DNA of 64,000 bases. Origin: Raineyella sp. W15-4 (GTDB lineage Bacteria; Actinomycetota; Actinomycetes; Propionibacteriales; Propionibacteriaceae). Within the stretch, counting starts at the first letter, position 1. Every line of letters begins with the position of its first letter. Position numbers and translations under genes: made by a program. The notes beneath the pieces were generated by a model. That model saw only the letters and a program-made list of their open reading frames with translations. It was not told where the DNA came from and did no database searches. The stretch spans positions 2,294,001 through 2,358,000 of the forward strand of contig NZ_CP137079.1 in the NCBI RefSeq assembly GCF_033170155.1. Direction: 5' to 3'. Below, one piece after another: positions 28,222 through 45,902 of the stretch.

Positions 28222-29826
28222 TCAGAGGCGCTCGACGGCCGCCCGCTCGACCGCCAGCCCGCGCTCGAACCGCTCCATGAACGTGGCGAATCCGGCGACA
28301 TCGGCCGGGTCGGGATCCATCGCCGCCAGCTGCGTCCCGGCGAAGACCTTCGTCCGCAGGTAGTCGGGCAGTGACTCGTCGGCGGCCCGGTCGCGCAGGA
28401 ACGCGGCCAGCACGGCGATCCCCCAGGCTCCGCCCTCACCGGCACTCGACCCGACCGTCACCGGCGCGTCGAGTGCCGCGGCGAGGATCCGCTGACCCAC
28501 GCCCTCGGTCCGGAAGAAGCCACCGTGGCCGTACATCGAGGTGATGCGTACCCCCTCGCCGGTCAGGACGTCCATGCCGAGCCGCAGGGTGCCGAGCATG
28601 CCGAAGAGCTGGGCGCGCATGAAGTTCGCCAGGTTGAGGGTGCTGTCGGGGGTACGGACGACCATCGGGCGGCCCTCCGCCAGGCCGACGTTGTGTTCCC
28701 CGGAGAGGAAGTTGTAGGTCAGCAGCCCGCCGCCGTCGGCGTCGGCGGTGAGTGCCGCCCGGAACAGGGTCTCGAACACCCGGGACGGCTCGGCCGGGGC
28801 GCCGAGTGCCGTGGCGAACTCGCCGAAGACCCCGGCCCACGCGTCGACCTCGCTGGCGCCGTTGTTGCAGTGCACCATGGCGACCGGGTCGCCCGACGGG
28901 GTGGTGACCATGTCGAGCTCCGGGTGCATCCGGTCGAGCTCGTGGTCGAGCACCACCATGGCGAAGATGCTGGTGCCGGCGCTGACGTTGCCGGTGAGTG
29001 GGGCGACCGAGCCGGTGGCCACCATGCCGGTGCCCGCGTCGCCCTCCGGTGGGCACAGCGGGACACCGGGCCGCAGGGTGCCGGTCGGATCGAGCAGCAG
29101 TGCCCCCTCGGGGGTCAGCGTGCCGGCGTCCTGGCCGGCCGACAACACGGTCGGCAGCAGGTCACCGGCCCGCCACGGCATCCCCTCGGCGGACGCCACC
29201 TCGTCGAACCGGTCGATCATCCCGGCGACGTAGCTCCCGGTCGCGGAATCGATCGGGAACATGCCGCTGGCGTCGCCGACGCCGATCACCCGCCGGCCGG
29301 TCAGCCGCCAGTGGACGTAGCCGGCCAGGGTGGTGATCTGGGCGACCCGGGAGACGTGCTCCTCCCCGTCGAGCATCGCCTGGCGCAGGTGGGCGATGCT
29401 CCAGCGCTGCGGGACGTGGAAGTCGAAGAGCCTGGTCAACTCGTCGGCGGCCCGCCCGGTGGAGGTGTTGCGCCAGGTGCGGAACGGGACGAGCAGCTCA
29501 CCCTCCGCGTCGAAGGCGAGGTAGCCGTGCATCATCGCAGAGACGCCCAGCGCCCCGAGCCCGGTGAGCTCGAGGCCGAAGCGGCGCCGTACGTCGGCGG
29601 CAAGGTCCGCATAGCAGGCCTGCACGCCCTCCCAGACCGCGTCCAGCGCGTACGTCCAGCGGCGGTCGACGAACTGGTTCTCCCAGGCATGGCTCCCCAC
29701 CCCGATCGGCTCGTGGTCGGGGCCGATCAGCACTGCCTTGATGCGCGTCGAGCCCAGCTCCATGCCGAGCACTGCCGTCCCTGCGGCGATGGCCTCCCGG
29801 GCCCGGTCCGTGATGGGGTCGATCAT
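28222..29826 (-). CDS. araB: L-ribulokinase or related FGGY-family kinase
   Basis: Phosphorylates L-ribulose to L-ribulose 5-phosphate; 534 residues, FGGY carbohydrate kinase family. The N-terminal domain shows [20 protein letters not shown] and [15 protein letters not shown]. The C-terminal part has [31 protein letters not shown] and [18 protein letters not shown]. It is divergent from araD with the third AraR-type palindrome between them. The assignment to L-ribulose rests on family and the araA/araD context; its sequence is closer to the larger FGGY variant than to E. coli AraB. Confidence 0.88.
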
Positions 29827-30806: not shown

Positions 30807-31790
30807 TCACAGGGAACGCACCCAGTGGCCCCACCGGGCATCGTTCATCGCCGCCCGGGCCCGATCGAGCTTCCATGCACCGTACTTGTAGTAGTCGAAC
30901 GACGAGGTGTCGTACTGGCGCTTGAGGCAAGCCCACAGACCCCAGTTGACGTCCGCCAGCGCGCCGGCGACCCGGACCCGCGAGACGGTCTGCCAGCAGG
31001 CCCGGCCATACAGCTCCTCGACGCACTCCAGCAGCGCGGGCTCGTCGTAGAAGAACTCGGTCGTCATCACCGCGAGCTCGTATGCCCGCTCGTTGTTCGC
31101 CGCGAACTCGAAATCGATCATCCGCAGCGGTCGTCCCTCAGCCACCAGGAAGTTGCCCGGCATCGGATCGTTGTGGCACGGCACGATGTCGAGGCCCGAC
31201 GCCGTGAACGCATCACGGGCTTCGGTGTATTCGGCCAGCACACGCCCGGCGAAGAACGGCAGCCGGACGCCGAGACGCTCGACCTGCCGAATGTAGCCGT
31301 CGATGGTGTCGAAGACCGTCTTCGTATGGGGCAGCAGCCCACTGGTCTGGAACTCCTTGTGCCGCCCGATGATCAGCCGGGCGATGTCGAGGTTCTTGAG
31401 ATCCGCGTTGGTGCAGGCCCGGTATCCCTCGAGGAACTCGATCACCTCTACGCCGGTCACAGCATCGATGTGCACCACCCGAGGCCCGATGCCCATCGCA
31501 CCCGCCCGGCGCGTCGCCTCGTGGGAGTTCACCCGGTCGATGTACTCCTCGCTCCCCTCGCCGGGGATCTTGAGGAAGTACGGGACCGGATCCCCCTCCA
31601 CGTCGACCCGCCAGTTGCTGTTGGAGATGCCGCCGCTGACCGGGTGGTAGGACACTGCTGCCAACCGCCACTCCTCGATGGCGGCGATCGCCTGCTCGAC
31701 TCGCCGTTCCCCCGGGGTCCGGGCCTCACCGACCTTCCGCCCGGTCGCCCGGGGTGCTGCCGCCTCGACGTGTGCTAGATCCGTCATCAT
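30807..31790 (-). CDS. Choline/ethanolamine-kinase-like phosphotransferase (APH superfamily)
   Basis: ATP-dependent small-molecule kinase of about 327 residues. Visible: the N-lobe GGISNSNWRV and FLKIPG, the catalytic loop CHNDPMPGNFL (HxDxxxxN intact) and metal-binding MIDFEFAANN, as in choline and ethanolamine kinases. ATG ATG at 31790/31787 follows AGGAGGG closely; a start at 31832, overlapping the upstream stop as ATGA, is also possible. It is last of a five- or six-gene minus-strand operon with a degenerate paralogue, an amidase and a symporter. Ethanolamine or a similar amino alcohol is a plausible substrate given the AGXT2L-type enzyme nearby; this is inferred. Confidence 0.75.
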   Translation of the reverse strand: MMTDLAHVEAAAPRATGRKVGEARTPGERRVEQAIAAIEEWRLAAVSYHPVSGGISNSNWRVDVEGDPVPYFLKIPGEGSEEYIDRVNSHEATRRAGAMGIGPRVVHIDAVTGVEVIEFLEGYRACTNADLKNLDIARLIIGRHKEFQTSGLLPHTKTVFDTIDGYIRQVERLGVRLPFFAGRVLAEYTEARDAFTASGLDIVPCHNDPMPGNFLVAEGRPLRMIDFEFAANNERAYELAVMTTEFFYDEPALLECVEELYGRACWQTVSRVRVAGALADVNWGLWACLKRQYDTSSFDYYKYGAWKLDRARAAMNDARWGHWVRSL

Positions 31791-31828
31791 CCCTCCTGGT
31801 AGGTCTGTTCGAGCGTCCTGCCGCTCGG

Positions 31829-32722
31829 TCATGCCACGAAGTAGCCGTCGTGGCGGCGGTCAAGCAGCGCCTCCCGCAGGTGCAGGAAGTGCCAATCGGC
31901 GAACTTGCTGTACTCGATGGTTCCCGGTTCCCGAAGGTCGCGGTACACGCCGATCAGCCCCTGGCGCAGGTGTTCGGCGGTCCCGAAGGCCCGGGCGGTG
32001 GCGTACGCCATCGGGTCCCATCCCCGGTTGAGGGTGGTGAAGAGGTCCTCCGGGTCGAGAGGCAGATATGCCAGTTCATCGAGCACCACCCCGATGTCCT
32101 GCAGCGGGTCCACCCAACGGGCGAGGTCCCAGTCGACCACCAGCATCCTGTCCTCGGAGAGCAGGATGTTGGAGACGTCGCCGACGTTGTGGCAGAACCG
32201 CCGCGCCTGCGGCCGGCCGTCCACCCACGTCGCCAGGTCGTCGACCCGCGCGGCCATCCACTCGATGTCGCCCGGCAGAGCCGGCGCGCCTGAGCCGATC
32301 AGTCGCCGGAGCTCGCGGATGTCGTCGAAGACGGAACAGGCGGGAGCGGTCACCGTGATCTCGTCCCGGATCCTGCCCAGGAGGTCGGCCAGACGCTCCA
32401 GTGCGGCGCGGTCCAGGAAGTCGTCGATCGTCGCCGTCCTCATCGTGTCGGAGACGTCCGCCATCACCAGCTCCCCGGTGGCGGCGTCGGAGGCCAGGAC
32501 CCGGGGGCCCAGACCGGCGTCGGACGCCGCCGTGGCTGCCGCCACCACGACCGCCGGCCTGGCATAGGCCCTGGCATCCGGGTGCATCTGTCGGACCAGG
32601 ACGGAGCCGCCGTTCGACAGTTGCCCGCGCCGCCGAATGGAGTCCGCGCCCCACCAGGTGGGGCTGGCGAGCGCGGAGATCTCCTCGACGGACACGGTCG
32701 GGAACGCATCGATGAGAGACAT
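31829..32722 (-). CDS. APH-superfamily protein with altered catalytic loop (possible pseudokinase)
   Basis: A 297-residue homologue of the neighbouring kinase. The C-lobe loop reads CHNVGDVSNIL, so the HxDxxxxN motif has Val180 where the catalytic Asp should be, while His178, Asn185 and the metal-binding Asp of VVDWDLA (Asp197) remain. An Asp at 182 is two positions away and might not substitute. The N-lobe is short and lacks a clear Gly-rich loop. Coupled by a 4-bp overlap (or a close spacing) to the intact kinase, it may be a regulatory or scaffolding partner, or a kinase with shifted chemistry. Substrate unknown. Confidence 0.65.
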   Translation of the reverse strand: MSLIDAFPTVSVEEISALASPTWWGADSIRRRGQLSNGGSVLVRQMHPDARAYARPAVVVAAATAASDAGLGPRVLASDAATGELVMADVSDTMRTATIDDFLDRAALERLADLLGRIRDEITVTAPACSVFDDIRELRRLIGSGAPALPGDIEWMAARVDDLATWVDGRPQARRFCHNVGDVSNILLSEDRMLVVDWDLARWVDPLQDIGVVLDELAYLPLDPEDLFTTLNRGWDPMAYATARAFGTAEHLRQGLIGVYRDLREPGTIEYSKFADWHFLHLREALLDRRHDGYFVA

Positions 32723-32723
32723 G

Positions 32724-34118
32724 TCACTCCTGGGGATCGGTGGGAAAGGACAGGTCGAACGGCCGGTGCTGCTCCAGCCAACGGGCCAACCGCAGGATCC
32801 GGTAGTCCGCGAAGCGCTGCCCGACGATCTGAATCCCGATCGGATGCCCCTCGTGGAGTCCGTAGCACAGCGTGACGGCCGGCTGACCCGTCTGGTTGAA
32901 CCACGCGGTGAAGCCGCAGTGGTAGAGCGGCCGATCCTCGTCCAGGCCGACCGACTCGGCCGGGAACGACACCACCGGCAGGACGGGAGACAGCACGACG
33001 TCGTAGGCCGCAGTCGCGAGGGTCACCCTCTGCTGCTCCGTCCCGACGGCGGCCAGGTCACGGGAGTAGTCGACCGCCGTGCGGTTCGCCGCCGGCCGGG
33101 CCCACTCGCGCACTGCGGGGTGAACCAGCCGGCCGGCAGCGCCGTGGTCGGCGATCTCGGCGGCGGCGCGGACCTGGAAGACCCGGTCCAGCGGATCATA
33201 CGGGTCGTGGTCGAAGAGCGGCCCCATCTCCTCGACCAGGGAACCGGCGGCGCGGAGCACCCCGGCCGCCCGCTCGACGGCCTCGATCACCTGCCCCGCG
33301 ACCGGGAAGCCGTAGCCGAGGTCTTTCAGCACCCCGACCCGCAGACCCGTGACACCCCCGGGACCGATTTCGCGATGGTTGTCCGGCAACGCCGGCAGGC
33401 TCCAGTTGTCGCGTGGGTCGGCTCTGGTGATGACGTCGAGGAGGTCCCAGGCATCATCCACCGTCCGCGCCATCGGGCCGGCGGACCGCATGGTGCTGGG
33501 GGCCAGGTGCGGGACCAGTCCCTGGGTCGGTTTCAGCCCGACCAGGCCGTTGCTGGCGGCCGGGAGACGTACGGACCCGGCGATGTCGGTACCGATCCCC
33601 GCCACCCCGACCCCGGCGGCGAGGCAGGCACCCGCGCCGGCGCTGGAACCGCTGGTGTTGCACGCGAGCTTCCAGGGATTGCGTACGACGCCGTAGAGAG
33701 AGCTGACGCCGGCGGCCATCATGCCCAGGTCCGGCATGGCGGTCTTGCCCAGGATGATGGCACCGGCCTCCTTCAGAGCCCTCGCCGGGGGCGCATCCAC
33801 ACGATCGTGGGGCAGGTCAGCGTTGGGCAGTGTGCCGTGCCGCCACGGCATCCCGTCCGAGCGGATGCTGTCCTTGATGGTCACCGGGACGCCGTCGAGC
33901 GGCCCCAGCGGCCGGCCGAGCCGCCACCTCCCGGTGGCGGCGTCGGCGGCCCTCAGGGCAGATTCCTCGGCCACGAAGGCCATCCCGTGGAGGGTGGGGT
34001 CGACCTCGGCGATCCGCTCCAGCTGCTGCTCGGTGACCTCGCGGGGGGTCAGCGCCCCGGTGGCGAACTGCTGGGTCAGCGAGCGAGCACTCATCTGCTC
34101 GGCCACGGGGAGTGACAT
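32724..34118 (-). CDS. Amidase-signature hydrolase
   Basis: Hydrolyses a C-N amide bond; 464 residues. The Ser-cisSer-Lys triad region is intact: Lys in DGVPVTIKDS, the cis-Ser in NTSGSSAGAGACLAAG (GSSAG rather than the usual GSSGG) and the nucleophile Ser in GIGTDIAGSVRLPAA. The family includes aryl-acylamidases, GatA and N-acylethanolamine (fatty acid amide) hydrolases. The first ATG (34116-34118) overlaps the symporter stop (TGATG); MSARSLTQQ, eight codons on, is an alternative. In context it could release an amine for the downstream kinase; that link is inferred. Confidence 0.82.
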   Translation of the reverse strand: MSLPVAEQMSARSLTQQFATGALTPREVTEQQLERIAEVDPTLHGMAFVAEESALRAADAATGRWRLGRPLGPLDGVPVTIKDSIRSDGMPWRHGTLPNADLPHDRVDAPPARALKEAGAIILGKTAMPDLGMMAAGVSSLYGVVRNPWKLACNTSGSSAGAGACLAAGVGVAGIGTDIAGSVRLPAASNGLVGLKPTQGLVPHLAPSTMRSAGPMARTVDDAWDLLDVITRADPRDNWSLPALPDNHREIGPGGVTGLRVGVLKDLGYGFPVAGQVIEAVERAAGVLRAAGSLVEEMGPLFDHDPYDPLDRVFQVRAAAEIADHGAAGRLVHPAVREWARPAANRTAVDYSRDLAAVGTEQQRVTLATAAYDVVLSPVLPVVSFPAESVGLDEDRPLYHCGFTAWFNQTGQPAVTLCYGLHEGHPIGIQIVGQRFADYRILRLARWLEQHRPFDLSFPTDPQE

Positions 34119-35698
34119 CACAGCTCCGAGTCCTCGTCGCGGAGTTCGTCCGCTCCACTGGCCACGAGCACCGGCTCGGCCACCGCGGCACCGAGGCGAC
34201 GGGTGGGATGCTGCGCCACCTCGAAGAACTGGGCGACCCGCTCGCGTTCCTCCTCGCCCTGACCCATCACCGCGTACACCACGAGATACACCACCAGGTT
34301 GACCGCCAGGCCCACGATGCCACCGGTGAGACTGCCGAGGGCCGGGATATCGTCCGGGAAGAAGAAGGTCATGATCGAGGCGACGAGCGACCCGAAGACC
34401 ATTCCGGCGGCCGCGCCGTACTTGTTGCCGCCGCGCCAGAAGATCCCCAGGAACAGCGGAACCGAGATCTGCACGACCAACTGGTAGGAGATCTGGGCGA
34501 GCAGCTGGAGCCGGGTCATGTTGAACGTGGTGAAGGCCACCACGGTGGCCAGCAGCATGAAGCCGGCCATGCTGCCCTTGGCGATGTAGGTCAGCTGGCG
34601 GTCCGACAGAGGCTTGCCGGGGCGCTGGACGATGTCGTTGGCGATCTGCAGACCGGAGACCTGGACCGAGCCGTCGATGTGGCCCATCGCAGCGGCGAAG
34701 ACGGTGACCACGGCGAGCCCGGTCAGCCAGGTGCCGCCGAACTGGTCGAGCAGGGTGAACCAACCACCTTGCGGATCCGCGGCGACCTCCGGGACGGTCA
34801 CTGCGGCCATGCCGACGAGCATCAGCACGGTGTAGAAGACGCCGCTGATCAGCATCGTCCGGGTGGTGGACGCCTTGACCGCACGCACACTGCTGGCGGT
34901 GTAGATGCGCTGGAAGCTCATCGGCCAGCAGAGGGCGCCGATGACGCCGGTGAAGATCAGGGCGAACCAGTAGAGCGGACCGTAGCTGCCACCGTCACCG
35001 GGGATCCTGAGGAACTGCTCTGGAATAGTGGCCAACTTCGACAGCGAGATGGGGCTGTTGCCCATGCCGGTCAGCATGATGACGCCGATCAGGGTGGAGA
35101 GACCGTAGGCCACAACGCCCTGGAACATGTCGGTCATGATCAGGCCACGCATGCCCATGTTGACCGTCCAGATCTGCCGGATGACGATCACGGCGATGCC
35201 CACGACGAGGCTGACGGCGATCGACCAGGTGCCACCACTGGCGACGTGGAACAGCTCGCCGAGTGCCTGCATTCCGAGGACGACCCACGGGAAGACCGCG
35301 ATCACGCCGACGACGCTGGAGATCACCCGCACCGCATGGGAGTCGAACCGCTTCCCGAGCAGGTCGGGCTGGGACTGCAGGTCGTACGCGGCACCCCAGC
35401 GCCACGCCCGGGTGGCCAAGAAGTACATCAGGCCGACGCCGAGCGTGGAATAGGCGAGACCGTAGAACCCGAAGATTCCGGCACCGGCCGCCATGCCGAA
35501 GAAGGCGATGAAGGTCGAGCCCGGCCACCAGGAATTAACGTACGACATCGCGACAAACCACGGTCCGTACGCGCGGCCACCGACAGCATATTCGGAGAAA
35601 GATTTCGTCGCCGCCTTGCGTCGAGTGGTGTAAAGAATCCCGATAACAATGAGATAGAAAACGGTGAGCATTCCGAGAGAAACAACCATGGGACTCAC
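34118..35698 (-). CDS. Sodium:solute symporter family transporter
   Basis: A 526-residue SSS-family transporter with about 13 hydrophobic segments. The N-terminus carries KSFSEYAVGGRAYGPWFVAM, a common SSS opening, and the sequence continues through SYVNSWWPGSTFIAFFGMAA and QPDLLGKRFDS. The last ~40 residues are a charged cytoplasmic tail. The start overlaps the upstream small membrane protein by 4 bp and the end overlaps the amidase, so the three are tightly coupled. Substrate unknown; close SSS types carry choline, pantothenate or amino acids. Confidence 0.88.
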   Translation of the reverse strand: MSPMVVSLGMLTVFYLIVIGILYTTRRKAATKSFSEYAVGGRAYGPWFVAMSYVNSWWPGSTFIAFFGMAAGAGIFGFYGLAYSTLGVGLMYFLATRAWRWGAAYDLQSQPDLLGKRFDSHAVRVISSVVGVIAVFPWVVLGMQALGELFHVASGGTWSIAVSLVVGIAVIVIRQIWTVNMGMRGLIMTDMFQGVVAYGLSTLIGVIMLTGMGNSPISLSKLATIPEQFLRIPGDGGSYGPLYWFALIFTGVIGALCWPMSFQRIYTASSVRAVKASTTRTMLISGVFYTVLMLVGMAAVTVPEVAADPQGGWFTLLDQFGGTWLTGLAVVTVFAAAMGHIDGSVQVSGLQIANDIVQRPGKPLSDRQLTYIAKGSMAGFMLLATVVAFTTFNMTRLQLLAQISYQLVVQISVPLFLGIFWRGGNKYGAAAGMVFGSLVASIMTFFFPDDIPALGSLTGGIVGLAVNLVVYLVVYAVMGQGEEERERVAQFFEVAQHPTRRLGAAVAEPVLVASGADELRDEDSEL

Positions 35699-35961
35699 TC
35701 CCCTTCCTGGATGCGGCGCTCATCAAGCTCGCCACGGAGATCTTCGATTCGATAAAGAACAGTCAGGCCGACACCCAGGAGTGCGGCATTGAAGATGTAG
35801 TAGAAGACGACGAACGGCAGGCCAAGAATCACCGGGTTACGCATTCCACTCACCGACATGTACGCCGGTGGGAACAGCACCATGACGAGAACGACGGCGT
35901 ACAGGACGATGGATCCAGTCATGATCGACCGCGGCGTCAAAGAACGGGCGAATTCCCTCAT
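35695..35961 (-). CDS. Small two-helix membrane protein, DUF3311-like symporter partner
   Basis: An 88-residue protein with two hydrophobic helices (around IMTGSIVLYAVVLVMVLFPP and PVILGLPFVVFYYIFNAALL) and a charged C-terminal tail (LYRIEDLRGELDERRIQEGE). Small proteins of this kind often precede SSS transporters and are thought to be accessory subunits. The ATG at 35961 is chosen for the GGGAGGATCTGAC ribosome site. It overlaps the symporter start by 4 bp and begins one base after the stop of a short leader ORF. Confidence 0.75.
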   Translation of the reverse strand: MREFARSLTPRSIMTGSIVLYAVVLVMVLFPPAYMSVSGMRNPVILGLPFVVFYYIFNAALLGVGLTVLYRIEDLRGELDERRIQEGE

Positions 35962-35962
35962 G

Positions 35963-36058
35963 TCAGATCCTCCCTTCAGGGGAGGAAGGCTGCTGACGTC
36001 GCCGTCCATCCACATCAGGGCGGAGACGCCCGAGCGGACACAGGGGGGTTGCATACAT
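35963..36058 (-). CDS. Possible 31-residue leader peptide ORF
   Basis: MYATPLCPLGRLRPDV followed by an Arg/Gln/Pro-rich tail, preceded by a good ribosome site (AAGGAG, 5-base spacing). Its stop codon lies one base before the start of the small membrane protein, and the ribosome site of that gene is inside this ORF. This geometry suggests translational coupling or a regulatory leader. No known family; it could also be chance. Confidence 0.4.
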   Translation of the reverse strand: MYATPLCPLGRLRPDVDGRRRQQPSSPEGRI

Positions 36059-36491
36059 CGTGACTCCTTGCGTGATTAACCCGAAGGAGTTGGACCCACG
36101 ATCAGCGATGGGGCTGACTCTAGACGAACTGAGGCGCCGAAGACAAGCCCTTGACCGAATCCTGCCCAGACCCGCAGGAAGGTAACACACCGTTAACAGA
36201 AAACGGTCGGGACGTTACCTCAACGACACCCCACAGCCCCTCACGACCGAAGATGGGAACAATACTGGTGACATCACCCATTCCGCCCGAATCAACTGGA
36301 CCCACGATCCGGCGGGAAACACTCACCACACCGGCAGTTATCTCCCGACACCCCGGCCACCCCAATGACTGCAGGCTGACGACTCAGTCTTCACCGACGT
36401 CGGGGGCGGCCAATCCAACGGAGCCGATTCCACCCACCCACCGGAAATTTGGCGAACGGGGATCCGCCGGTCGAAAAGGCTTGGAGGACTT
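36059..36491. other. Divergent intergenic region
   Basis: A 433-bp spacer between the leftward symporter operon and the rightward AGXT2L-type gene, visibly lower in GC than its flanks. It must hold both promoters. A GGTAAC/GTTAAC pair (around 36181-36198) is a weak dyad. No gene is supported here. Confidence 0.5.
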
Positions 36492-37835
36492 GTGGCCACC
36501 AGATCCACCATCATGGACACGAACAGTTTTCGGAACGAGGACTTCTCGTCCGTTCCGACCGCGGAACGTGTGCTCATCGAGCGTCGCCAGCGCCTCCTCG
36601 GTGGTGCATACCGCCTGTTCTACCGCAGGCCCGTCCATCTCGTCCGGGGACGCGGGCAGTACCTGTGGGACGCCGAGGGCCACCGGTATCTGGACGTCTA
36701 CAACAATGTCGCGAGCATCGGACACGGCCACCCACGCGTCATCGAGGCGGTGGCCAAGCAGATGGGCTCGCTGAACACCCACACGCGGTACATGCACGAG
36801 ACGATCCTCGACTACTCCGAGCGGATCATGGCTACCATGCCGTCCCAGGTCGATCGGGCGATGTACATGTGCACCGGGTCAGAAGCCAACGATCTCGCCG
36901 TTCGCGTCGCTCAGCTGTACACCGGCGGTCGCGGCATCATCGTCACCAGCGAGGCGTACCACGGCACGAGCGAGCTCACCTCCGGACTCTCCCCCGCCCT
37001 CGGCAGCGGCCAACGGCTCTCCCGGGAGGCCAGAACCGTGGCGGCGCCGGATCCCTATCGCCACGGGGCCGAAGAGCTCGGACACCGGTTCGCCCTGGAC
37101 CTGCAGGCGCAGATCGACGATCTGCGCCGAGCCGGAGTCGGCTTCGCGGGGTTCCTGGCCGATTCGATCTTCTCCTCCGACGGAGTCCTGCCCAACGAGC
37201 CAGGTGTGCTGCGAGAGGCCATCGACCTCGTCCATGCGAACGGCGGGATCTTCATCGCCGACGAGGTCCAACCGGGCTTCGCCCGGACCGGGGACTCCTT
37301 CTGGGGATTCCAGCGACACGGCCTCGTTCCCGACCTGATCACCACGGGCAAGCCGATGGGCAACGGGATACCCGTCTCGGGGCTGTTCGGCCGGCGCGAA
37401 GTGCTGCAGGCGTTCAGCGACGAGGTGCCGTACTTCAACACCTTCGGGGGCAACCCGGTGTCAATGGCCGCAGCCCAGGCGGTGCTCGACGTGATCGAGG
37501 AGGAGGACCTCCAACGGCACGCCCAGGAGATCGGCACGCGCTTCCTCACCGCCCTCCGCCAGGTCGCCCGGGAACACCCCACCGTGGTCGGTGACGTCAG
37601 AGGGGCTGGACTCTTCATCGGCTTCGAACTTGTCCGGGACGCCGAGTCCCGCCTCCCGGACAAGACCCTGGCGCTCGATCTGGTCGAGGAATTGCGAGAA
37701 CGGTTCGTCCTGACCTCGGTCGCAGGGCCCTATGGCAACGTGCTCAAGCTCCGGCCCCCACTACCCTTCAACGCGGAGGACGTCGTGTGGGTCGCTGATG
37801 CCCTGGATGAGTCCCTGCGCGCTCTGGGACACTGA
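36492..37835 (+). CDS. Class III PLP enzyme of the AGXT2L (O-phosphoethanolamine phospho-lyase) type
   Basis: A 447-residue fold-type-I PLP enzyme. It shares the AGXT2L subfamily hallmarks rather than ordinary aminotransferase ones: YLDVYNNVASIGHGHPRVIE, KQMGSLNTHTRYMHETI, GSEANDLAVRVA, the PLP lysine in TTGKPMGNGIPV, FGGNPVSMAAAQAVLDVIEE, GDVRGAGLFIGFELVRD and GPYGNVLKLRPPLPF. AGXT2L enzymes split phosphorylated amino alcohols (phosphoethanolamine, phosphohydroxylysine) into aldehyde, ammonia and phosphate. The GTG at 36492 follows GGAGG; ATG at 36513 is possible. Divergent from the operon holding a choline/ethanolamine-kinase-like protein that could supply its substrate. The exact substrate is not determinable here. 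Confidence 0.82.
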   Translation: MATRSTIMDTNSFRNEDFSSVPTAERVLIERRQRLLGGAYRLFYRRPVHLVRGRGQYLWDAEGHRYLDVYNNVASIGHGHPRVIEAVAKQMGSLNTHTRYMHETILDYSERIMATMPSQVDRAMYMCTGSEANDLAVRVAQLYTGGRGIIVTSEAYHGTSELTSGLSPALGSGQRLSREARTVAAPDPYRHGAEELGHRFALDLQAQIDDLRRAGVGFAGFLADSIFSSDGVLPNEPGVLREAIDLVHANGGIFIADEVQPGFARTGDSFWGFQRHGLVPDLITTGKPMGNGIPVSGLFGRREVLQAFSDEVPYFNTFGGNPVSMAAAQAVLDVIEEEDLQRHAQEIGTRFLTALRQVAREHPTVVGDVRGAGLFIGFELVRDAESRLPDKTLALDLVEELRERFVLTSVAGPYGNVLKLRPPLPFNAEDVVWVADALDESLRALGH

Positions 37836-37845
37836 TCATCTCCCC

Positions 37846-37875
37846 GGCCCGCCGGTCGACGTCGCCCGGCGGGCC
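37846..37875 (+). terminator. Hairpin terminator after the AGXT2L-type gene
   Basis: GGCCCGCCGG (37846-37855) and CCGGCGGGCC (37866-37875) pair perfectly around a 10-nt loop, 10 bp after the stop codon. A further dyad (GGGTCCC/GGGACCC) follows before the GntR gene. Confidence 0.6.
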
Positions 37876-37963
37876 GGCGGAGGCGGATCGCCTCCGGTCC
37901 GGTGCGGGTCCCACGGAGGACCTCCCACCGGACGGGACCCAGCCCAGTGACAGGAGGACCCCG

Positions 37964-38791
37964 GTGCCACCGCGAGCAGTGTCGTCCACGGACGACATCA
38001 AGTACGCGCTGCTTCGCCTGATCCGGGAGGCGGGCTTCCATCCCGGTGAACGGATCGGCAGCGAACGGGAGCTGTCCGCATCGATCGGCACGACCCGCGA
38101 GCGGGTGCGCCAGGTGCTCGACGAGCTGGAGGCGGAGCACCGCGTCCGCCGGGCCACCGGACGCACCGGCGGTGTGTTCGCCGACGACGGACGCATCCAA
38201 CGGCAGCTCAACACCACCGAGAGCGTCCCCGCCCTGCTGAGGCAGCAGGGCAAGAGTGTCGAGACCCACATCGTCCGTAGCGACATCGCGCTGGCGACGC
38301 CGTACGAGTGTCGCAACCTCGACATCGAGACCGGAGCGGGGGTGTTCCGGCTGGAGCGCCTGCGGGTCGTGGACGGCGAACCGTGGTCGCTGGAGAAGTC
38401 GACCATGCCGGCACGCCGGTTCCCCAACATCGCGACGCACGACTACACGGGGTCGCTCTACGGCGTCCTCGAGCAGCACTACGGGACCAAGTCCTCGACC
38501 GCCAAGGAGACTCTCGAGGTCGCCTTCGCCGACGCGGACCAGGCCATGCTGCTCGGGGTGTCCATCGGGCACCCGCTGATCGAGATCCGACGGACCGCCT
38601 ACGACGTGGACGACGCCCCGTTCGAACTGGCCCACGACCTGTTCCGGGCCGACCGGACCCGGGTCCACACCCAGCGGTACGGCGCCAACTGGAAGCGATC
38701 GCCCGACACCCGCTCCGCCCGGAGCAATCGGTCGGGGAACCCTCGCATCCAGCCTTCCAAGGCCGTCCAACCATCCAAGGAGCAGGGATGA
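37964..38791 (+). CDS. GntR-family regulator with UTRA domain
   Basis: A 275-residue HutC/PhnF-type regulator starting at GTG. The winged helix occupies residues 8-75 (GSERELSASIGTTRERVRQV). The UTRA effector domain follows (VFRLERLRVVDGEPWSLEKS, then PLIEIRRTAYDVDDAPFELA). The final 30 residues (from about 243) are a disordered basic tail. Its stop overlaps the HAD gene start (ATGA), so the two form a pair. It may control the flanking phospho-lyase and symporter genes; inferred from position. Confidence 0.85.
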   Translation: MPPRAVSSTDDIKYALLRLIREAGFHPGERIGSERELSASIGTTRERVRQVLDELEAEHRVRRATGRTGGVFADDGRIQRQLNTTESVPALLRQQGKSVETHIVRSDIALATPYECRNLDIETGAGVFRLERLRVVDGEPWSLEKSTMPARRFPNIATHDYTGSLYGVLEQHYGTKSSTAKETLEVAFADADQAMLLGVSIGHPLIEIRRTAYDVDDAPFELAHDLFRADRTRVHTQRYGANWKRSPDTRSARSNRSGNPRIQPSKAVQPSKEQG

Positions 38792-39501
38792 CCGCTGCGT
38801 CGAAAACGCTGGAGTCCCGGCGAGGGCCGGCCGCCGTGCTGTGGGACATGGACGGCACGCTGATCGACACCGAGCCCTACTGGGTCGAGGCCTGCCGTGA
38901 GCTGGTCCACGCCCACGGTGGTGAGGTGGGAAACGACGAGGCGGCCGCACTTCTCGGCCTGTCTCTGGTCGACACGGCGCGCGTCGTGATCGGGCTGGGC
39001 GTGTCCCTTCCCGAAAACCACGTCATCGGTGAGATCGCCACGTCGGTCCGCACACGCATGGTGGCGCAGGGCGCTCCTTGGCGGCCGGGCGCACGGTCGT
39101 TGCTCGAGGCGCTGCACGCGGCCGGCACCCCGATGGCCCTGGTGTCCATGTCCTCACGGGAGATAATCGACGTCTTTCTCGAAACACTGGCGCCCGACGG
39201 GTCAAGCCCGTTCCACACCGTGGTCGCCGGTGACCAGGTGCGGCACGGCAAGCCACACCCGGAGGCCTATCGCACAGCGGTCGAGGCGCTGGCACTGCGG
39301 CCCGAGGACTGCCTCGCCATCGAGGACTCGACCACCGGTGCCCGCAGCGCCGTGGCAGCAGGTCTTCCCACCCTTCTGGTCCCCAGCGCCCCCGGCGCCC
39401 CCGTTCCCGGAGCCCTGCTGACCGCGACCCTGGTGGGCGCCACCGTGCACAGCGTGGAACGGCTGTGGAGCGAGGCCAGAACGGCGCGGGACCATCAGTA
39501 G
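38788..39501 (+). CDS. HAD-family phosphatase
   Basis: A 237-residue haloacid-dehalogenase-type hydrolase of the beta-phosphoglucomutase/phosphatase subgroup. Motif I is LWDMDGTLIDTEP (nucleophile Asp and acid Asp), motif II VSMSS, motif III Lys in GKPHPEAYRTAV, motif IV AIEDSTTGARSA. All catalytic residues are present. It overlaps the GntR stop by 4 bp and its end overlaps the convergent amidohydrolase by 7 bp. The substrate is unknown; it could recycle a phosphorylated intermediate of the neighbouring kinase pathway. Confidence 0.88.
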   Translation: MTAASKTLESRRGPAAVLWDMDGTLIDTEPYWVEACRELVHAHGGEVGNDEAAALLGLSLVDTARVVIGLGVSLPENHVIGEIATSVRTRMVAQGAPWRPGARSLLEALHAAGTPMALVSMSSREIIDVFLETLAPDGSSPFHTVVAGDQVRHGKPHPEAYRTAVEALALRPEDCLAIEDSTTGARSAVAAGLPTLLVPSAPGAPVPGALLTATLVGATVHSVERLWSEARTARDHQ

Positions 39502-40712
39502 CCGGCAGTGAGCTCCGCGAGCACGCCCGTCAGGGTCACCAGTCCCTTCTCGAGGTCGGACGGCAGGGTGTACTCCCTCGGCGAGTGGGCGTGACCACCA
39601 CAGCTCGGGACGAAGATCAGAACGGTCGGCATCGTACGGGCCACGATCACGGCATCATGACCCGCGATCGTGCACAGCTCCCCGACGGTGAATCCGAGGG
39701 ACTGTGCGACCGACCGGGTCAGCTCGATGCCTTCCGGCCAGAACGCGCGCGATCCCCGGGCTGACCGCTGTACCACCTCAATCTCCAAGCCGTACGCGTC
39801 CGCGACCGTGCTCAGCATCTCCTCGAACCATTCCTCCGCCCGGAGAACAGTGCCGAGCTCGGCGCTGCGCAGTTCGATATGGGCCGCGGCCACCGAAGTG
39901 ACCACGTTCGGGGAATGGGGAAAGGTCACCACGTCGGTCGCGGAGGCGTGGAACTGCTCGTCGTGGTGTCGCGCAAAGTCATCGATCGCCGCGACAATCC
40001 TGGCGAGTCCCACCAGGGCATCCCTCCGTTGCACCATCGGGGTGGACCCGGTGTGGCCCTGCTCCCCGGTGATCCGGATGTCGTACTTCCCCGCTGCCCA
40101 GTTGGCACTCACAGCGGCGACATCGAGCTCTTCTCGCTCCATCCGGTCGCCCTGCTCGACATGGATCTCGGCATAGCGCACCGCTGTACCGGTGAATTCC
40201 TCGTTTCCGAGGAACCCGATGCCGGACAGGGCCTGGCGGAGGGTGACGCCGGAGGCGTCGGTCGATCCGAGCGCATCCTCCAGGGCCAGGAATCCACAGT
40301 GCACGGAACTTCCCATCACACTCGGCTGGAAACGCGCACCCTCCTCGTTGGTCCAGTCGACGACAACCAGATTCCGGACCGGCGTCAGGTTTCCCGAACG
40401 AACACGTGCGTCCAGCTCCTCCGCAGCATTGAGCGCGGCCACGACGCCGTACGCCCCGTCATACCTGCCGCCGTTCGGCTGGCTGTCCAGGTGTGATCCG
40501 CACATCACCCAATCGGCTCCGTCGGTCCAGGTGAAGAGCCCGAAGATGTTACCGATCGGATCAACCACGATCCGCGCCCCTGCGCCGGCCAAGCGTTCGC
40601 ACAGCCACCGACGCTGGTCGCCGTCGGCCGCGGTGGCCGCCTGCCGATCGACAGCGCCGCCCTCCCCCGCCCCGAAACGGGACACCCGTGCGAAGTCCTC
40701 CGCCAACGACAT
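39495..40712 (-). CDS. M20-type N-carbamoyl-L-amino acid hydrolase / amidohydrolase
   Basis: Zn-dependent amidohydrolase of 405 residues, in the family of N-carbamoyl-L-amino acid hydrolase, allantoate and beta-ureidopropionate amidohydrolases. Metal and dimer motifs are readable: GSHLDSQPNGGRYDGAYGV, WTNEEGARFQPSVMGS, the His of EIHVEQGDRM, TIAGHDAVIVA and SCGGHAHSPREYT. The ATG at 40712 (MSLAEDFA) is chosen because a GGAGG lies at the usual distance; the ATG five codons upstream would contain that site. It is 169 bp from the PucR gene on the same strand. Substrate unknown. Confidence 0.85.
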   Translation of the reverse strand: MSLAEDFARVSRFGAGEGGAVDRQAATAADGDQRRWLCERLAGAGARIVVDPIGNIFGLFTWTDGADWVMCGSHLDSQPNGGRYDGAYGVVAALNAAEELDARVRSGNLTPVRNLVVVDWTNEEGARFQPSVMGSSVHCGFLALEDALGSTDASGVTLRQALSGIGFLGNEEFTGTAVRYAEIHVEQGDRMEREELDVAAVSANWAAGKYDIRITGEQGHTGSTPMVQRRDALVGLARIVAAIDDFARHHDEQFHASATDVVTFPHSPNVVTSVAAAHIELRSAELGTVLRAEEWFEEMLSTVADAYGLEIEVVQRSARGSRAFWPEGIELTRSVAQSLGFTVGELCTIAGHDAVIVARTMPTVLIFVPSCGGHAHSPREYTLPSDLEKGLVTLTGVLAELTAGY

Positions 40713-40881
40713 CCGTCTGTCCTCCATCGATTCGCCTGCTTATGGGCATGGACATTAGGCCCCGGGGGGAGGGCTGCCGCCGCCTCCGCATGACGGTGCC
40801 ATGACGAAATCGAGGTCCCGCATGAACGGTGCGTGAAGCGATCACACCCACGCGGGTCAATCCGTCGACGGCGTGGATCCG

Positions 40882-42545: not shown

Positions 42546-43841
42546 GTGATCACTCTCGCCGACTATCAGACCTACCTCAGTCCCGCGTTGGCGAAGACGA
42601 CGGATCTCATCATCGATCGCGGCGAGGGCTCCTACCTCTGGGACACCGGTGGTCGCCGCTACCTGGACTGGGTCCAGGGGATCGCGGTCAACGCTCTGGG
42701 CCACTGTCACCCCCGCGTCGTCGCCGCGATCAAGGGCCAGGTCGACAAACTGCTCACCGCCTCGTTCAACATGGTCAACTACGAGACCACCCTGCAGTGG
42801 GCCGAACGCATCGCCGAGGTGGCTCCGGGCGAGCTGTCGACGACCTTCTTCTCCAACGGCGGAGCGGAAGCCATCGACGGCGCCCTCAAACTGGCGAAGG
42901 CCTACACCGGCCGGCCCGGCATCATCGCCTTCAAGGGCTCGTTCCACGGCCGGACGATCGGCGCCACCTCGGTGACCGCGTCGAACGCCAAGTACCGCAA
43001 GGGCTACGACCCGCTCGTCGCCGGTATCGACCTCACCACCTACCCCTCTGCCGGGCAGGCGCCGGCGGGGTTCACTCCTGACGAGATCGCCGACTTCGCC
43101 CTGGGTCAGCTGGAGGACCTCTTCGCGTACGTCCGCGATCCCGAGTCGGTGGCAGCCATCCTGATGGAGCCCGTCCAGGGCGAGGGCGGTTATGTCGTGC
43201 CGCCGCGGAAGTTCGTCACCGCGGTGCGGGAACTCTGCGACCGCCACGGCATCCTGCTCATCTTCGACGAGATCCAGGCGGGCTACGGCCGCACCGGGAC
43301 CTTCTTCGCGAGTGAGAACTTCGGCGTGGTGCCGGACATCATGACGATCGGCAAGGCGATGGCCGGCGGGCTGCCGGCCAGCGGCGTGGTGTCCACCGCC
43401 GAGATCATGGCGGCCTGGGGACCCGGCCGCCACGGCGGCACCTTCGGTGGCAATCCGGTGGTGGCTGCCGCCGGGCTCGCGGTGCTCGACGAGTTCGCCG
43501 AGGCCGACGTGCTGGACAACGTCAACGAGGTCGGCGGCTACCTCGCCACCCGACTGGCCGAGCTCCGGGAACGCTTCCCGGTGGTGACCGACAGCCGCGG
43601 TCTCGGCCTGATGCGGGCCATCGAGCTCAACCATGTCGACGGTCGCCCCGGTGGCGACCTGTTGGAGCAGGTGCGCCGGCGTTGTCTGCAGGACGGGCTG
43701 CTCACCCTGTCCTGTGGCGTACGGGGCAACGGGATGCGCTTCGCCACCCCGCTCAACACGACCACGGAGACTCTCGACGAGGGCCTGGCGATCCTCGAGT
43801 CCGCGCTGGAACACGTCACCGCAGAGGAGCTGGCCCGATGA
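42546..43841 (+). CDS. Class III aminotransferase (acetylornithine/GABA aminotransferase-like)
   Basis: PLP-dependent transaminase of 431 residues; GTG start preceded by AAAGGGAGG. Motifs: YLDWVQGIAVNALGHCHPRV, FFSNGGAEAIDGALKLA, AFKGSFHGRTIGATSVT, EPVQGEGGYVVP, FDEIQAGYGRTG, the PLP lysine in TIGKAMAGGLPASG, and HGGTFGGNPVVAAA. It acts on an omega- or beta-amino group; the precise substrate cannot be read. It overlaps the hydroxyacid dehydrogenase gene by 4 bp (ATGA), suggesting that the carbonyl product is reduced or that both serve one catabolic chain. Confidence 0.88.
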   Translation: MITLADYQTYLSPALAKTTDLIIDRGEGSYLWDTGGRRYLDWVQGIAVNALGHCHPRVVAAIKGQVDKLLTASFNMVNYETTLQWAERIAEVAPGELSTTFFSNGGAEAIDGALKLAKAYTGRPGIIAFKGSFHGRTIGATSVTASNAKYRKGYDPLVAGIDLTTYPSAGQAPAGFTPDEIADFALGQLEDLFAYVRDPESVAAILMEPVQGEGGYVVPPRKFVTAVRELCDRHGILLIFDEIQAGYGRTGTFFASENFGVVPDIMTIGKAMAGGLPASGVVSTAEIMAAWGPGRHGGTFGGNPVVAAAGLAVLDEFAEADVLDNVNEVGGYLATRLAELRERFPVVTDSRGLGLMRAIELNHVDGRPGGDLLEQVRRRCLQDGLLTLSCGVRGNGMRFATPLNTTTETLDEGLAILESALEHVTAEELAR

Positions 43842-44842
43842 CCCCGAAGGCCGTCTACTTCAACATCGACGGCGACCTCGGCTACGAGCACGCACTGCTC
43901 GAGGAGTGGGGCGTCGCCGACCGACTCGAGCTGGTCGAGGTGAAGACCGCCGACAACGCCGCCGACACGTTCGTGGCTGCCGCACAGGACGCCGACGGCG
44001 CCGTGGTCGAGTACTTCGAGGTCACCCGAGAGGTGCTCGAGCGACTGCCCCGGCTCAAGGTCGTCTCGCTGCAGGCGATCGGCGTGTCGAACGTCGACCT
44101 GGCGGCCGCGAGCGACCACGGCGTGGCGGTCACGAACACCCCGGGCTTCTGCTCCGAGGACGTCGCCCTGCACACCGTGGGCATGCTGATCGACCTGGTC
44201 CGCAAGATCAGCTTCCTCGACCGCAGCGTCCGGGCCGGCCACTGGGACCCGCTGCTCGGACCGATGCCGCAGCGCCTCTCGGGCCGGACGATCGGCCTGG
44301 TCTACTTCGGCAGCATCCCCACACTGATGGTCCCGATGCTGAAGGCCATCGGCCTGCGGGTGGTCGTCTTCGCCCCCACCAAGACCGCAGAGTATCTGGC
44401 GGAGTACGGCGTGGAGAAGGTCGACACCCTCGACGAGCTGCTCCGGGCCTCCGATGTGGTCTCCCTGCACACCCCGCTGACGCCACAGACCCATCACCTG
44501 ATCGGCGCCCGCGAGCTGGAGCTGATGAAGCCCACCGGCTACCTCATCAACACCGCCCGTGGCGCGGTTGTCGACGAGCCGGCCCTGGTGGCAGCGCTGC
44601 GTACCGGCGGGATCGCCGGCGCCGCCGTCGACGTGATCGAGGACGAGGATGCTGAGCAGTCCGACCTGTTCGGGCTGGAGAACGTCGTGGTCACCCCGCA
44701 CGCCGCCTTCGTCTCCGAACAGTCCCTCGCCGACGGCCGGCGGATCGCCCTGTCCCAACTCGTCCAGCGTCTCGTGGACGGGCGGACCCCGGACAACCAG
44801 GTGAACACGCTCGATGCGGCCGCCACGCCGAAGGTCGGGTGA
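43838..44842 (+). CDS. D-isomer-specific 2-hydroxyacid dehydrogenase-like protein with altered Rossmann motif
   Basis: A 334-residue member of the D-2-hydroxyacid dehydrogenase family. The catalytic set is present: Arg in LINTARGAVVDEPALV, an acidic VDVIEDEDAEQSDLF segment where the Glu normally lies, and His in VVTPHAAFVS. The dinucleotide-binding turn, normally GxGxxG, reads IGLVYFGSIP, so the first and third glycines are Tyr and Pro. NAD binding may therefore be altered. It lies between an aminotransferase (4-bp overlap) and a Zn alcohol dehydrogenase (7-bp gap) in one operon. Confidence 0.8.
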   Translation: MTPKAVYFNIDGDLGYEHALLEEWGVADRLELVEVKTADNAADTFVAAAQDADGAVVEYFEVTREVLERLPRLKVVSLQAIGVSNVDLAAASDHGVAVTNTPGFCSEDVALHTVGMLIDLVRKISFLDRSVRAGHWDPLLGPMPQRLSGRTIGLVYFGSIPTLMVPMLKAIGLRVVVFAPTKTAEYLAEYGVEKVDTLDELLRASDVVSLHTPLTPQTHHLIGARELELMKPTGYLINTARGAVVDEPALVAALRTGGIAGAAVDVIEDEDAEQSDLFGLENVVVTPHAAFVSEQSLADGRRIALSQLVQRLVDGRTPDNQVNTLDAAATPKVG

Positions 44843-44849
44843 GGAGGCG

Positions 44850-45902
44850 ATGAGAGCGGTCGTCTTCAACGGTCCCTACGACGTCTCGGTCGAGACAGTC
44901 CCCGACCCCGGGATCGAGGAGCCGAGTGACGCCGTCGTCCAGGTCGAGGCGGCCGCGGTCTGTGGCTCGGACCTGTGGACCTATCGCGGGCAGGCGTCGG
45001 TCTCGCCGGGGGCCCGGATCGGACACGAGTTCCTCGGCCGTGTCGTCGCCCTGGGGAGTTCCGTCACCGGTCTGGCCGTCGGGGACTGGGTCGTCGCGCC
45101 GTTCCGCTACTCCGACGGATGCTGCGAGTTCTGCGCCGAGGGGCTCACCTCGTCCTGTCTGCACGGCGGGTTCTGGGGCCGGGAGGTCCTCGACGCCGGA
45201 CAGGGCGAGTACGTCCGGGTGCCCCAGGCCGACGGCACGCTGGTGCGGGTGGGATCAGGCGGTGCCGCCCCCGATCCCACCATGCTGCCGGACCTGCTGA
45301 CTCTCGCCGACGTGATGCCGACCGGATTGCACGCAGTGACCAGCGCCGGCGTCGGACCGGGTGACACCGTCGTCGTGGTCGGTGACGGCGCCGTCGGTCA
45401 GTGCGCAGTGACCGCGGCGCGCCTGGCCGGCGCCGAACGAGTGATCGTGCTGGGTGGCACCCACGCCGACCGGGAGAACCTCGCGAGATCGCTCGGTGCT
45501 GACGACTTCCTGTCCCTGCGGGGAGAGGCCGCCGTCACCGCGATCCACGAGTTGACCGGCGGACGCGGGGCCCGACGGGTGATCGAGTGTGTCGGATCGT
45601 CGGCGTCGTTCGCCACGGCGCTCGCCGTCACCCGCCCCGGAGGCTCGGTGGGCTACGTCGGGCTCCCGCACGGCGTGACCATCGACCTGGCCCAGCTCTT
45701 CGGGCGCAACATCACCATGTCCGGTGGTATGTGCCCGGCCCGCCACTACCTGCCGGACCTGCTGGAGAAAGTCCTCGGCGACGAAATCCATCCAGGTGCA
45801 GTTTTCACCTCGATCGCCGGCCTCGAGAAGGCCGCGGATGCGTATGATCTCATGGATCGTCGCACCACGATCAAGGCGATGCTGAAACCGTCGTCACTGT
45901 AA
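44850..45902 (+). CDS. Zinc-dependent alcohol dehydrogenase (MDR, threonine-dehydrogenase-like)
   Basis: A 350-residue medium-chain dehydrogenase. The catalytic zinc site has Cys in AAVCGSDLWTY and His in IGHEFLGRVV. The structural-zinc loop reads DGCCEFCAEGLTSSC, with Asp in the position of the first Cys, seen in a known subset of the family. The NAD fold is VVVVGDGAVGQCAVTAARLAG. The ATG at 44850 is chosen as the conserved start MRAVVFNGP; a frame extension upstream overlaps the previous gene. Third gene of the aminotransferase operon; alcohol substrate unknown. Confidence 0.9.
   Translation: MRAVVFNGPYDVSVETVPDPGIEEPSDAVVQVEAAAVCGSDLWTYRGQASVSPGARIGHEFLGRVVALGSSVTGLAVGDWVVAPFRYSDGCCEFCAEGLTSSCLHGGFWGREVLDAGQGEYVRVPQADGTLVRVGSGGAAPDPTMLPDLLTLADVMPTGLHAVTSAGVGPGDTVVVVGDGAVGQCAVTAARLAGAERVIVLGGTHADRENLARSLGADDFLSLRGEAAVTAIHELTGGRGARRVIECVGSSASFATALAVTRPGGSVGYVGLPHGVTIDLAQLFGRNITMSGGMCPARHYLPDLLEKVLGDEIHPGAVFTSIAGLEKAADAYDLMDRRTTIKAMLKPSSL

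What the first reader, a model, noticed from the sequence alone, without database searches (positions are those of the whole stretch)
30807..37835. Candidate amino-alcohol catabolic system: amidase, kinase, phospho-lyase and symporter
The PLP enzyme at 36492 carries the sequence hallmarks of AGXT2L phospho-lyases, which act on phosphorylated amino alcohols. Divergent from it is an operon with a choline/ethanolamine-kinase-like protein (intact HxDxxxxN), an amidase-signature hydrolase and an SSS symporter. Together they could import an N-acyl amino alcohol or free amine, deacylate it, phosphorylate it and split it to aldehyde, ammonia and phosphate, a route independent of the B12-dependent eut pathway. 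In some bacteria kinase and AGXT2L domains are known to be fused; here they are separate genes.
Basis: partly seen in the sequence, partly recalled or inferred. Interest (0 to 1): 0.7.

Follow-up and report, generated by a model that had tools for sequence, protein, structure and literature searches.

The report
Amide-to-ethanolamine breakdown gene module
This stretch holds a conserved set of bacterial genes that probably imports a small amide, phosphorylates and cuts it, and passes the ethanolamine-like piece to an enzyme that splits it into aldehyde, ammonia and phosphate; the starting amide is unknown.

Summary
The PLP enzyme (36492-37835) is of the AGXT2L phospho-lyase group: its best solved relatives are human ETNPPL and an Arthrobacter phospholyase, well ahead of any transaminase. 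Divergent from it lie a symporter, an amidase, KIN2 and KIN1. KIN2 has lost its catalytic Asp in this genus yet stays under purifying selection.

Linkage is real. In 87 loci (36 KIN1 lineages) KIN2 is adjacent in 86 and M20 or amidase is present in 84. An amine sink lies nearby in 36 loci (17 lineages): AGXT2L, B12-dependent EutBC, a GlnA4-like cluster or microcompartment genes. Sixty control windows held no AGXT2L or EutB.

I infer that the core frees ethanolamine, or 1-amino-2-propanol, from an unidentified amide. Kinases persist where EutBC is the sink, so phosphorylation probably precedes hydrolysis. AGXT2L is the sink here. Nothing was assayed; 19 of 36 lineages show no sink nearby. Ten paper searches listed no paper on this gene set. 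New variant of a known kind.

The parts
30807..31790 (-). KIN1, choline/ethanolamine-kinase-fold protein, catalytic motif intact (open frame to 31832)
   Evidence: Pfam Choline_kinase 72.3 bits over 29; profile finds 16 of 16 solved choline/ethanolamine kinases at E<=1e-5; Foldseek ranks 1-48; motif
31829..32722 (-). KIN2, same fold, catalytic Asp lost in this genus; probable non-catalytic partner of KIN1
   Evidence: Asp in 70 of 72 aligned KIN2, Val in window and L016; dN/dS 0.17; Foldseek ranks 1-49; adjacent to KIN1 in 86 of 87 loci
32724..34118 (-). Amidase-signature hydrolase
   Evidence: Pfam Amidase 260.3 bits; Lys82, Ser158, Ser182 present; amidase in 62 of 87 loci
34118..35698 (-). 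SSS-family symporter
   Evidence: Pfam SSF 72 bits; SSS in 33 of 87 loci
35695..35961 (-). Small membrane protein before SSS (putative subunit)
   Evidence: Homologue directly before SSS in L016, L018 and many actinobacterial loci; no Pfam match
36091..36103 (+). 13-base element, copy 1, candidate operator
   Evidence: Exact copy at same spacing in L016
36297..36309 (+). 13-base element, copy 2, candidate operator
   Evidence: 206 bases from copy 1; 205 in L016
36492..37835 (+). AGXT2L-type PLP enzyme, predicted phospho-lyase (start may be 36513)
   Evidence: 6tor 343 bits, 5g4i 317, next 187; blocks; AGXT2L in 25 of 87 KIN1 loci, 0 of 60 controls
37979..38791 (+). GntR/UTRA regulator
   Evidence: Pfam UTRA 124.6, GntR 36.4 bits; 89% in L016; GntR in 29 of 87 loci
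38788..39501 (+). HAD-family phosphatase
   Evidence: Pfam HAD_2 103.6 bits; HAD in 8, HisN-like phosphatase in 42 of 87 loci
39495..40727 (-). M20 hydantoinase/carbamoylase-type amidohydrolase
   Evidence: TIGR01879 244 bits over 204, NF006772 436.9 over 424; M20 in 75 of 87 loci; R287 and R324 in 73 of 73 aligned

Best explanation
The region encodes a conserved catabolic module that frees a small amino alcohol, most likely ethanolamine or its homologue 1-amino-2-propanol, from an imported amide or ureide. Proposed order: (1) the SSS symporter with its small partner imports the amide (inferred). (2) KIN1, with KIN2 as non-catalytic partner in this genus, phosphorylates its hydroxyl group (fold and family shown, substrate inferred). 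(3) The M20 hydrolase, the amidase or both cut the amide of the phosphorylated compound (inferred). (4) The AGXT2L enzyme splits the phospho-amino-alcohol into aldehyde, ammonia and phosphate (family shown, activity inferred). The HAD phosphatase may supply free amine, and the GntR/UTRA protein probably controls the divergent promoters (inferred). In other bacteria the same core sits beside EutBC, a GlnA4-like cluster or microcompartment genes as alternative sinks.
For: AGXT2L assignment. KIN1 and KIN2 are of the choline/ethanolamine kinase fold. Core conserved: 86 of 87 loci with KIN2, 84 with M20 or amidase. Sinks in 36 of 87 loci, 17 of 36 lineages; AGXT2L 25 loci, EutB 8, GlnA 5, microcompartment genes 4; 0 of 60 control windows with AGXT2L or EutB. 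EutB and EutC of L038 pass curated cut-offs. KIN1-AGXT2L-EutB-EutC in a row in Rhodococcus ruber. EutBC with the core on 4 of 9 plasmid regions read. L027 has the content listed for the S. coelicolor glnA4 cluster. Kinases and phosphatase kept in 8 of 8 EutB loci.
Against: 51 of 87 loci and 19 of 36 lineages have no recognised sink in the stretch held. EutB alone is borderline at lineage level (p 0.05). Phosphatase genes also accompany 21 of 25 AGXT2L loci, where they would not be needed. M20 is missing in 12 of 87 loci and amidase in 25. No substrate or activity was tested. Controls came from actinobacteria only and from positions I chose, while many loci are proteobacterial.
Confidence: 0.55

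Rival explanations
1. One reading: an N-acyl amino alcohol, or the free amine, is imported and deacylated first; then the kinase phosphorylates the free amine and AGXT2L splits it.
For: Same genes; the known chemistry of ethanolamine kinase plus phospho-lyase; the kinase fold is that of choline/ethanolamine kinases.
Against: The kinase pair and a HisN-like phosphatase are kept in 8 of 8 EutB loci, where phosphorylating free ethanolamine would be futile.
Confidence: 0.22
2. The core degrades something else, such as a ureide or peptide-like compound with no amino alcohol in it, and the amine sinks are merely neighbours in catabolic regions.
For: M20 relatives include carbamoylases and allantoate hydrolases. 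51 of 87 loci show no sink. Five transporter families, one of the urea-transporter family. Urease, allophanate hydrolase or formamidase genes near a few loci.
Against: Four different routes for ethanolamine-sized amino alcohols recur beside the core, often directly after KIN1; 0 of 60 controls have AGXT2L or EutB.
Confidence: 0.15
3. The PLP enzyme is an ordinary class III transaminase and the kinases serve another step.
For: Pfam class III aminotransferase; the closest NCBIfam models are below cut-off.
Against: 130-bit gap between the two phospholyases and the next solved relative; phospholyase-type blocks; in the 7 of 8 other AGXT2L contexts that I could read, a kinase gene lies within about 2 kb (L010, L011, L193, L194, L195, L197, L198; L196 unreadable).
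Confidence: 0.05

Closest known systems
AGXT2L / ethanolamine-phosphate phospho-lyase (human ETNPPL 6tor; Arthrobacter 5g4i)
   Same: Full-length match at 343 and 317 bits, catalytic Lys and three blocks shared
   Different: Activity not shown; here it works beside KIN1/KIN2 and amide hydrolases instead of a single kinase
RMM / Aut (1-amino-2-propanol) microcompartment loci of Rhodococcus and Mycobacterium (PMC4207490, PMC6620236; passages)
   Same: GntR, kinase-like phosphotransferase, class III PLP gene and amino-alcohol substrate; the KIN1 core lies beside shell genes in L024, L067, L074 and L104
   Different: No shell or acylating aldehyde dehydrogenase gene was found in the window's block; other transporter; adds KIN2, M20 and amidase; those papers call the PLP enzyme an aminotransferase
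Eut pathway (EutBC, B12-dependent)
   Same: Same presumed amine; EutB in 8 of 87 KIN1 loci
   Different: No EutBC at this locus; a eutB lies elsewhere in the genome
GlnA4 gamma-glutamylethanolamide route of S. coelicolor (PMC6529630, passages)
   Same: A cluster of matching content follows the core in L027
   Different: Not present in the window's block
Fused kinase-AGXT2L proteins (NCBIfam PRK06148, PRK06149)
   Same: PLP part matches at 467 bits; the kinase of this genome's second AGXT2L locus matches the kinase part (197.5 bits)
   Different: Genes are separate, and KIN1/KIN2 gave no match to that kinase part

Membership tests
AGXT2L phospho-lyase | Closest solved relatives are phospholyases rather than transaminases | tested here: met
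   343 and 317 bits against 187 for the next
AGXT2L phospho-lyase | Catalytic Lys and the blocks shared by both solved phospholyases | tested here: met
   Lys287, NNVA, GKPMGNG, GGNPVS
AGXT2L phospho-lyase | Releases phosphate, ammonia and aldehyde from a phospho-amino-alcohol | not testable with these tools
   needs assay
Choline/ethanolamine kinase | Fold and HxDxxxxN motif (KIN1) | tested here: met
Choline/ethanolamine kinase | HxDxxxxN motif (KIN2) | tested here: not met
   HNVGDVSN; Asp in 70 of 72 other and own aligned KIN2 rows, Val in window and L016; fold kept
Choline/ethanolamine kinase | Phosphorylates an amino alcohol | not testable with these tools
   needs assay
Amidase signature family | Lys-Ser-Ser triad (recalled) | tested here: met
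   Lys82, Ser158, Ser182; Pfam 260.3 bits
M20 hydantoinase/carbamoylase family | Score over curated cut-off | tested here: met
   TIGR01879 244 over 204
M20 hydantoinase/carbamoylase family | Hydrolyses an N-carbamoyl or ureido group | not testable with these tools
   needs assay
RMM / Aut microcompartment locus | Shell-protein genes in the locus | tested here: not met
   no shell-protein match by tblastn in window 20801-41800
Eut pathway | EutBC in the locus | tested here: not met
   none in window 20801-41800; eutB elsewhere in the genome
Fused PRK06148 protein | Single protein over the cut-off of 1128 bits | tested here: not met
   467.3 bits, PLP part only

The most novel reading that the evidence does not exclude
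A widespread, undescribed phosphorylate-first route: a choline-kinase-like pair (kinase with a pseudokinase partner in this genus) phosphorylates an amide or ureide of ethanolamine, an M20 enzyme adapted to the phosphate (Arg324) or an amidase cuts it, and one of several interchangeable sinks removes the amino alcohol. The natural amide would be an unrecognised nutrient of actinobacteria, rhizobia, agrobacteria (also on Ri and opine plasmids) and plant-associated pseudomonads.
Probability: 0.36. Interest if true: 0.75.

Novelty: new variant of a known kind. Interest (0 to 1): 0.6.

Why it matters
Ethanolamine use is usually described as uptake of the free amine followed by EutBC. A conserved front end placed before several alternative sinks would mean that many soil and plant bacteria obtain it from an amide nobody has named, and would give a function to gene sets now annotated as phosphotransferase, Zn-dependent hydrolase and histidinol-phosphatase. 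The natural exchange of AGXT2L for EutBC makes the substrate class testable with few assays, and a retained pseudokinase next to a small-molecule kinase is unusual.

Tried and rejected
KIN2 as a pseudokinase throughout the family: rejected, the Asp is present in 70 of 72; it is lost in this genus and, read by eye, in the divergent KIN2 of L019, L026 and L027. M20 W210 and K214 as a phosphate-site signature: dropped, shared with a paralog elsewhere in this genome. PucR (40882) and the cluster after it as parts: dropped, not in the syntenic block of L016. Repeated recruitment of AGXT2L: the tree needs 6 changes (bootstrap 5-6), but well-supported branches force only 1, so likely, not shown. Promoter and terminator scan of 35600-36600: none found. 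Viral contigs: no relative; phage records: two matches at 23-26% identity. Phylum search: 14 of 396 genomes, of which 12 hold only 26-32% relatives, not examined further. Starting amides considered from recall only (vitamin B12 side chain, siderophores, opines, hydroxyethylurea, N-acylethanolamines): nothing decided between them. My gene caller missed or garbled KIN1 in L018, L024, L035, L045, L046, L057, L060, L062, L063, L068 and L097 and L196 as a whole, so counts rest on tblastn with cut-offs of my choice. L025 was left out of the 87 loci as the same contig as L036. 73 of 75 M20 were aligned. Structure models used 48 KIN1 and 42 KIN2 sequences. Nine of 78 plasmid regions were read: EutBC in four, none in five.
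Full report
WHAT IS THERE. The window is part of a 3.96-Mb contig. On the minus strand an operon reads small membrane protein (35695-35961), SSS symporter (34118-35698), amidase (32724-34118), KIN2 (31829-32722) and KIN1 (30807-31832). The listed ORFs lie between 4 bases of overlap and a 1-base gap; if KIN1 starts at 31790, after an AGGAGG sequence, its gap to KIN2 is 38 bases. Divergent from them are the PLP enzyme (36492-37835), a GntR/UTRA regulator (37979-38791) and a HAD phosphatase (38788-39501); an M20 hydrolase (39495-40727) converges on these. A same-genus genome (G003, L016) keeps exactly this block, at 74-94% identity, with other neighbours.

PLP ENZYME. Among solved chains the best matches are human ethanolamine-phosphate phospho-lyase (343 bits) and an Arthrobacter phospholyase (317 bits); the next is 187 bits. 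Lys287 and the blocks NNVA, GKPMGNG and GGNPVS align with both phospholyases and differ from GABA transaminase. The genome has two more AGXT2L paralogs at 51% identity. One sits with a kinase that matches the kinase part of the fused PRK06148 proteins, the other with a kinase, GntR, SDR and APC permease. Activity is inferred from family.

KINASES. KIN1 passes the Pfam choline kinase cut-off. Its eight-sequence profile finds 16 solved sequences at E<=1e-5, all named choline or ethanolamine kinase. The AlphaFold model (mean pLDDT 93.3) has such kinases in Foldseek ranks 1-48. KIN2 (92.2) has them in ranks 1-49. Of 72 aligned KIN2, 70 have the catalytic Asp; the window and L016 have Val. In the Lys column 61 have K, 8 R (the window among them) and 3 a gap. 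dN/dS between window and G003 is 0.17 for KIN2 and 0.15 for KIN1. So KIN2 is kept without its catalytic residue, most simply as a partner of KIN1; that is inference.

CONSERVED MODULE. KIN1 is uncommon: 4 of 96 relatives at E 1e-30 and 5 of 393 genomes of the class at E 1e-40, own genome counted in both. By tblastn with cut-offs of my choice: KIN2 adjacent in 86 of 87 (L083 begins at KIN1), M20 75, amidase 62, M20 or amidase 84, HisN-like phosphatase 42, HAD 8, a transporter 77 (SSS 33, DppA 33, LivK 5, RbsB 5, urea-transporter family 1). Grouped at 75% KIN1 identity there are 36 lineages: KIN2 in 36, M20 or amidase in 34. These lineages are not fully independent. Control: 60 stretches of 20 kb, at positions I chose in seven actinobacterial genomes that hold KIN1, gave M20 0, HisN 0, AGXT2L 0, EutB 0, amidase 1, HAD 1, DeoR 2.

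SWITCHABLE SINKS. AGXT2L lies in 25 of 87 loci (12 lineages), EutB in 8 (3), GlnA in 5 (2), microcompartment shell genes in 4 (3); any of these in 36 loci and 17 lineages. EutB and EutC of L038 pass NCBIfam cut-offs. In agrobacteria and bradyrhizobia the order is Dpp transporter, DeoR, M20, KIN2, KIN1, HisN-like phosphatase, EutB, EutC. In Rhodococcus ruber (L038) KIN1 is followed by AGXT2L, EutB and EutC. On plasmids 78 of 72,556 records hold KIN1. Of nine regions read, pRi2659, pAoF64/95, pRi1724 and a Paracoccus yeei plasmid carry EutBC with the core and five do not. L027 has a GlnA-like gene, amidotransferase, aldehyde-dehydrogenase-like gene and SDR after M20 (-style gene calls in 30 and 38), the content listed for the S. 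coelicolor glnA4 cluster (PMC6529630, passages); the last two of these four genes I named by eye. L024, L067, L074 and L104 lie by shell genes, three of them also by an aldehyde dehydrogenase. All four routes consume ethanolamine or a close homologue, which is why I place that amine at the output. At lineage level AGXT2L is clear (p 2e-06), EutB alone borderline (p 0.05).

WHY PHOSPHORYLATION MAY COME FIRST. EutBC acts on the free amine, yet 8 of 8 EutB loci keep both kinases and a HisN-like phosphatase. The L105 phosphatase passes the histidinol-phosphatase model (288.8 over 275.15) and the L038 one does not (235.7). Kinase, hydrolase, phosphatase, EutBC is then a sensible order, and AGXT2L can replace the last two steps. 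The M20 keeps an Arg (R287, 73 of 73) that in carbamoylases binds the substrate carboxylate (recalled), although ethanolamine has none. It also has Arg324 in 73 of 73, absent from two M20 paralogs of this genome and, read by eye, from the five solved relatives shown. These are hints. Against: a phosphatase also accompanies 21 of 25 AGXT2L loci; L029, L042, L059 and L061 lack both types.

OPEN. The amide is unknown, and 51 of 87 loci show no sink in the stretch held. Ethanolamine and 1-amino-2-propanol are not separated: the window's AGXT2L groups with that of a Dietzia KIN1 locus, then near proteins from GntR-SDR-kinase clusters, one of them with an APC permease. That resembles the RMM/Aut gene set (PMC4207490, PMC6620236; passages), whose PLP enzyme those papers call an aminotransferase. 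Mallette and Kimber 2018 is cited there; I did not see it. PMC8154272 (passages) and PMC8217296 (passages) gave context.

LITERATURE. Ten paper searches listed no paper that by title or abstract opening describes this gene set. The library lacks most subscription journals, so this is weak evidence of absence.

VERDICT. The module is a new variant of known ethanolamine and amino-alcohol catabolism.

Noticed in passing
window 36091-36103 and 36297-36309; L016 9987-9999 and 10192-10204: The same 13 bases occur exactly twice in the divergent promoter region, 205-206 bases apart, in both genomes; candidate operator of the GntR protein.
   Followed up: partly
window 37844-37877: Two 17-base arms, 94% complementary with no gap between them, right after the PLP stop codon; possible terminator or regulatory hairpin.
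   Followed up: no
window 42546-45902 and L010 10235-12702: A class III aminotransferase and an alcohol dehydrogenase gene pair recurs beside the second AGXT2L locus of this genome (63% and 58% identity).
   Followed up: no
window 28222-29826: FGGY-type kinase near araA that scores far below the cut-offs of the xylulokinase and ribulokinase models.
   Followed up: no
L099, about 1.4 kb after KIN1: A weak EutC match without EutB, as if an EutBC pair were being lost.
   Followed up: no
L080 15825-16811; L111 15879-24930: Acetamidase/formamidase-family gene downstream of the core in Caballeronia; allophanate hydrolase, formamidase and HpxZ annotated after the core on a Pseudomonas oryzihabitans plasmid. 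Possible hints to the amide.
   Followed up: no
L024, L028, L035, L046, L104: Five of the 12 loci without M20 have an SDR gene; 4 of 75 with M20 also have one (L029, L031, L047, L058).
   Followed up: no
L109, L110, L213: On the three Ri or opine plasmids the module is followed by a cluster with two GDSL hydrolases, a sugar ABC transporter, glpK and glpD.
   Followed up: no
G000 C1 3936423-3937625 (L178): A second M20 gene, 44% identical to the window's, with W210 and K214 but not R324.
   Followed up: partly
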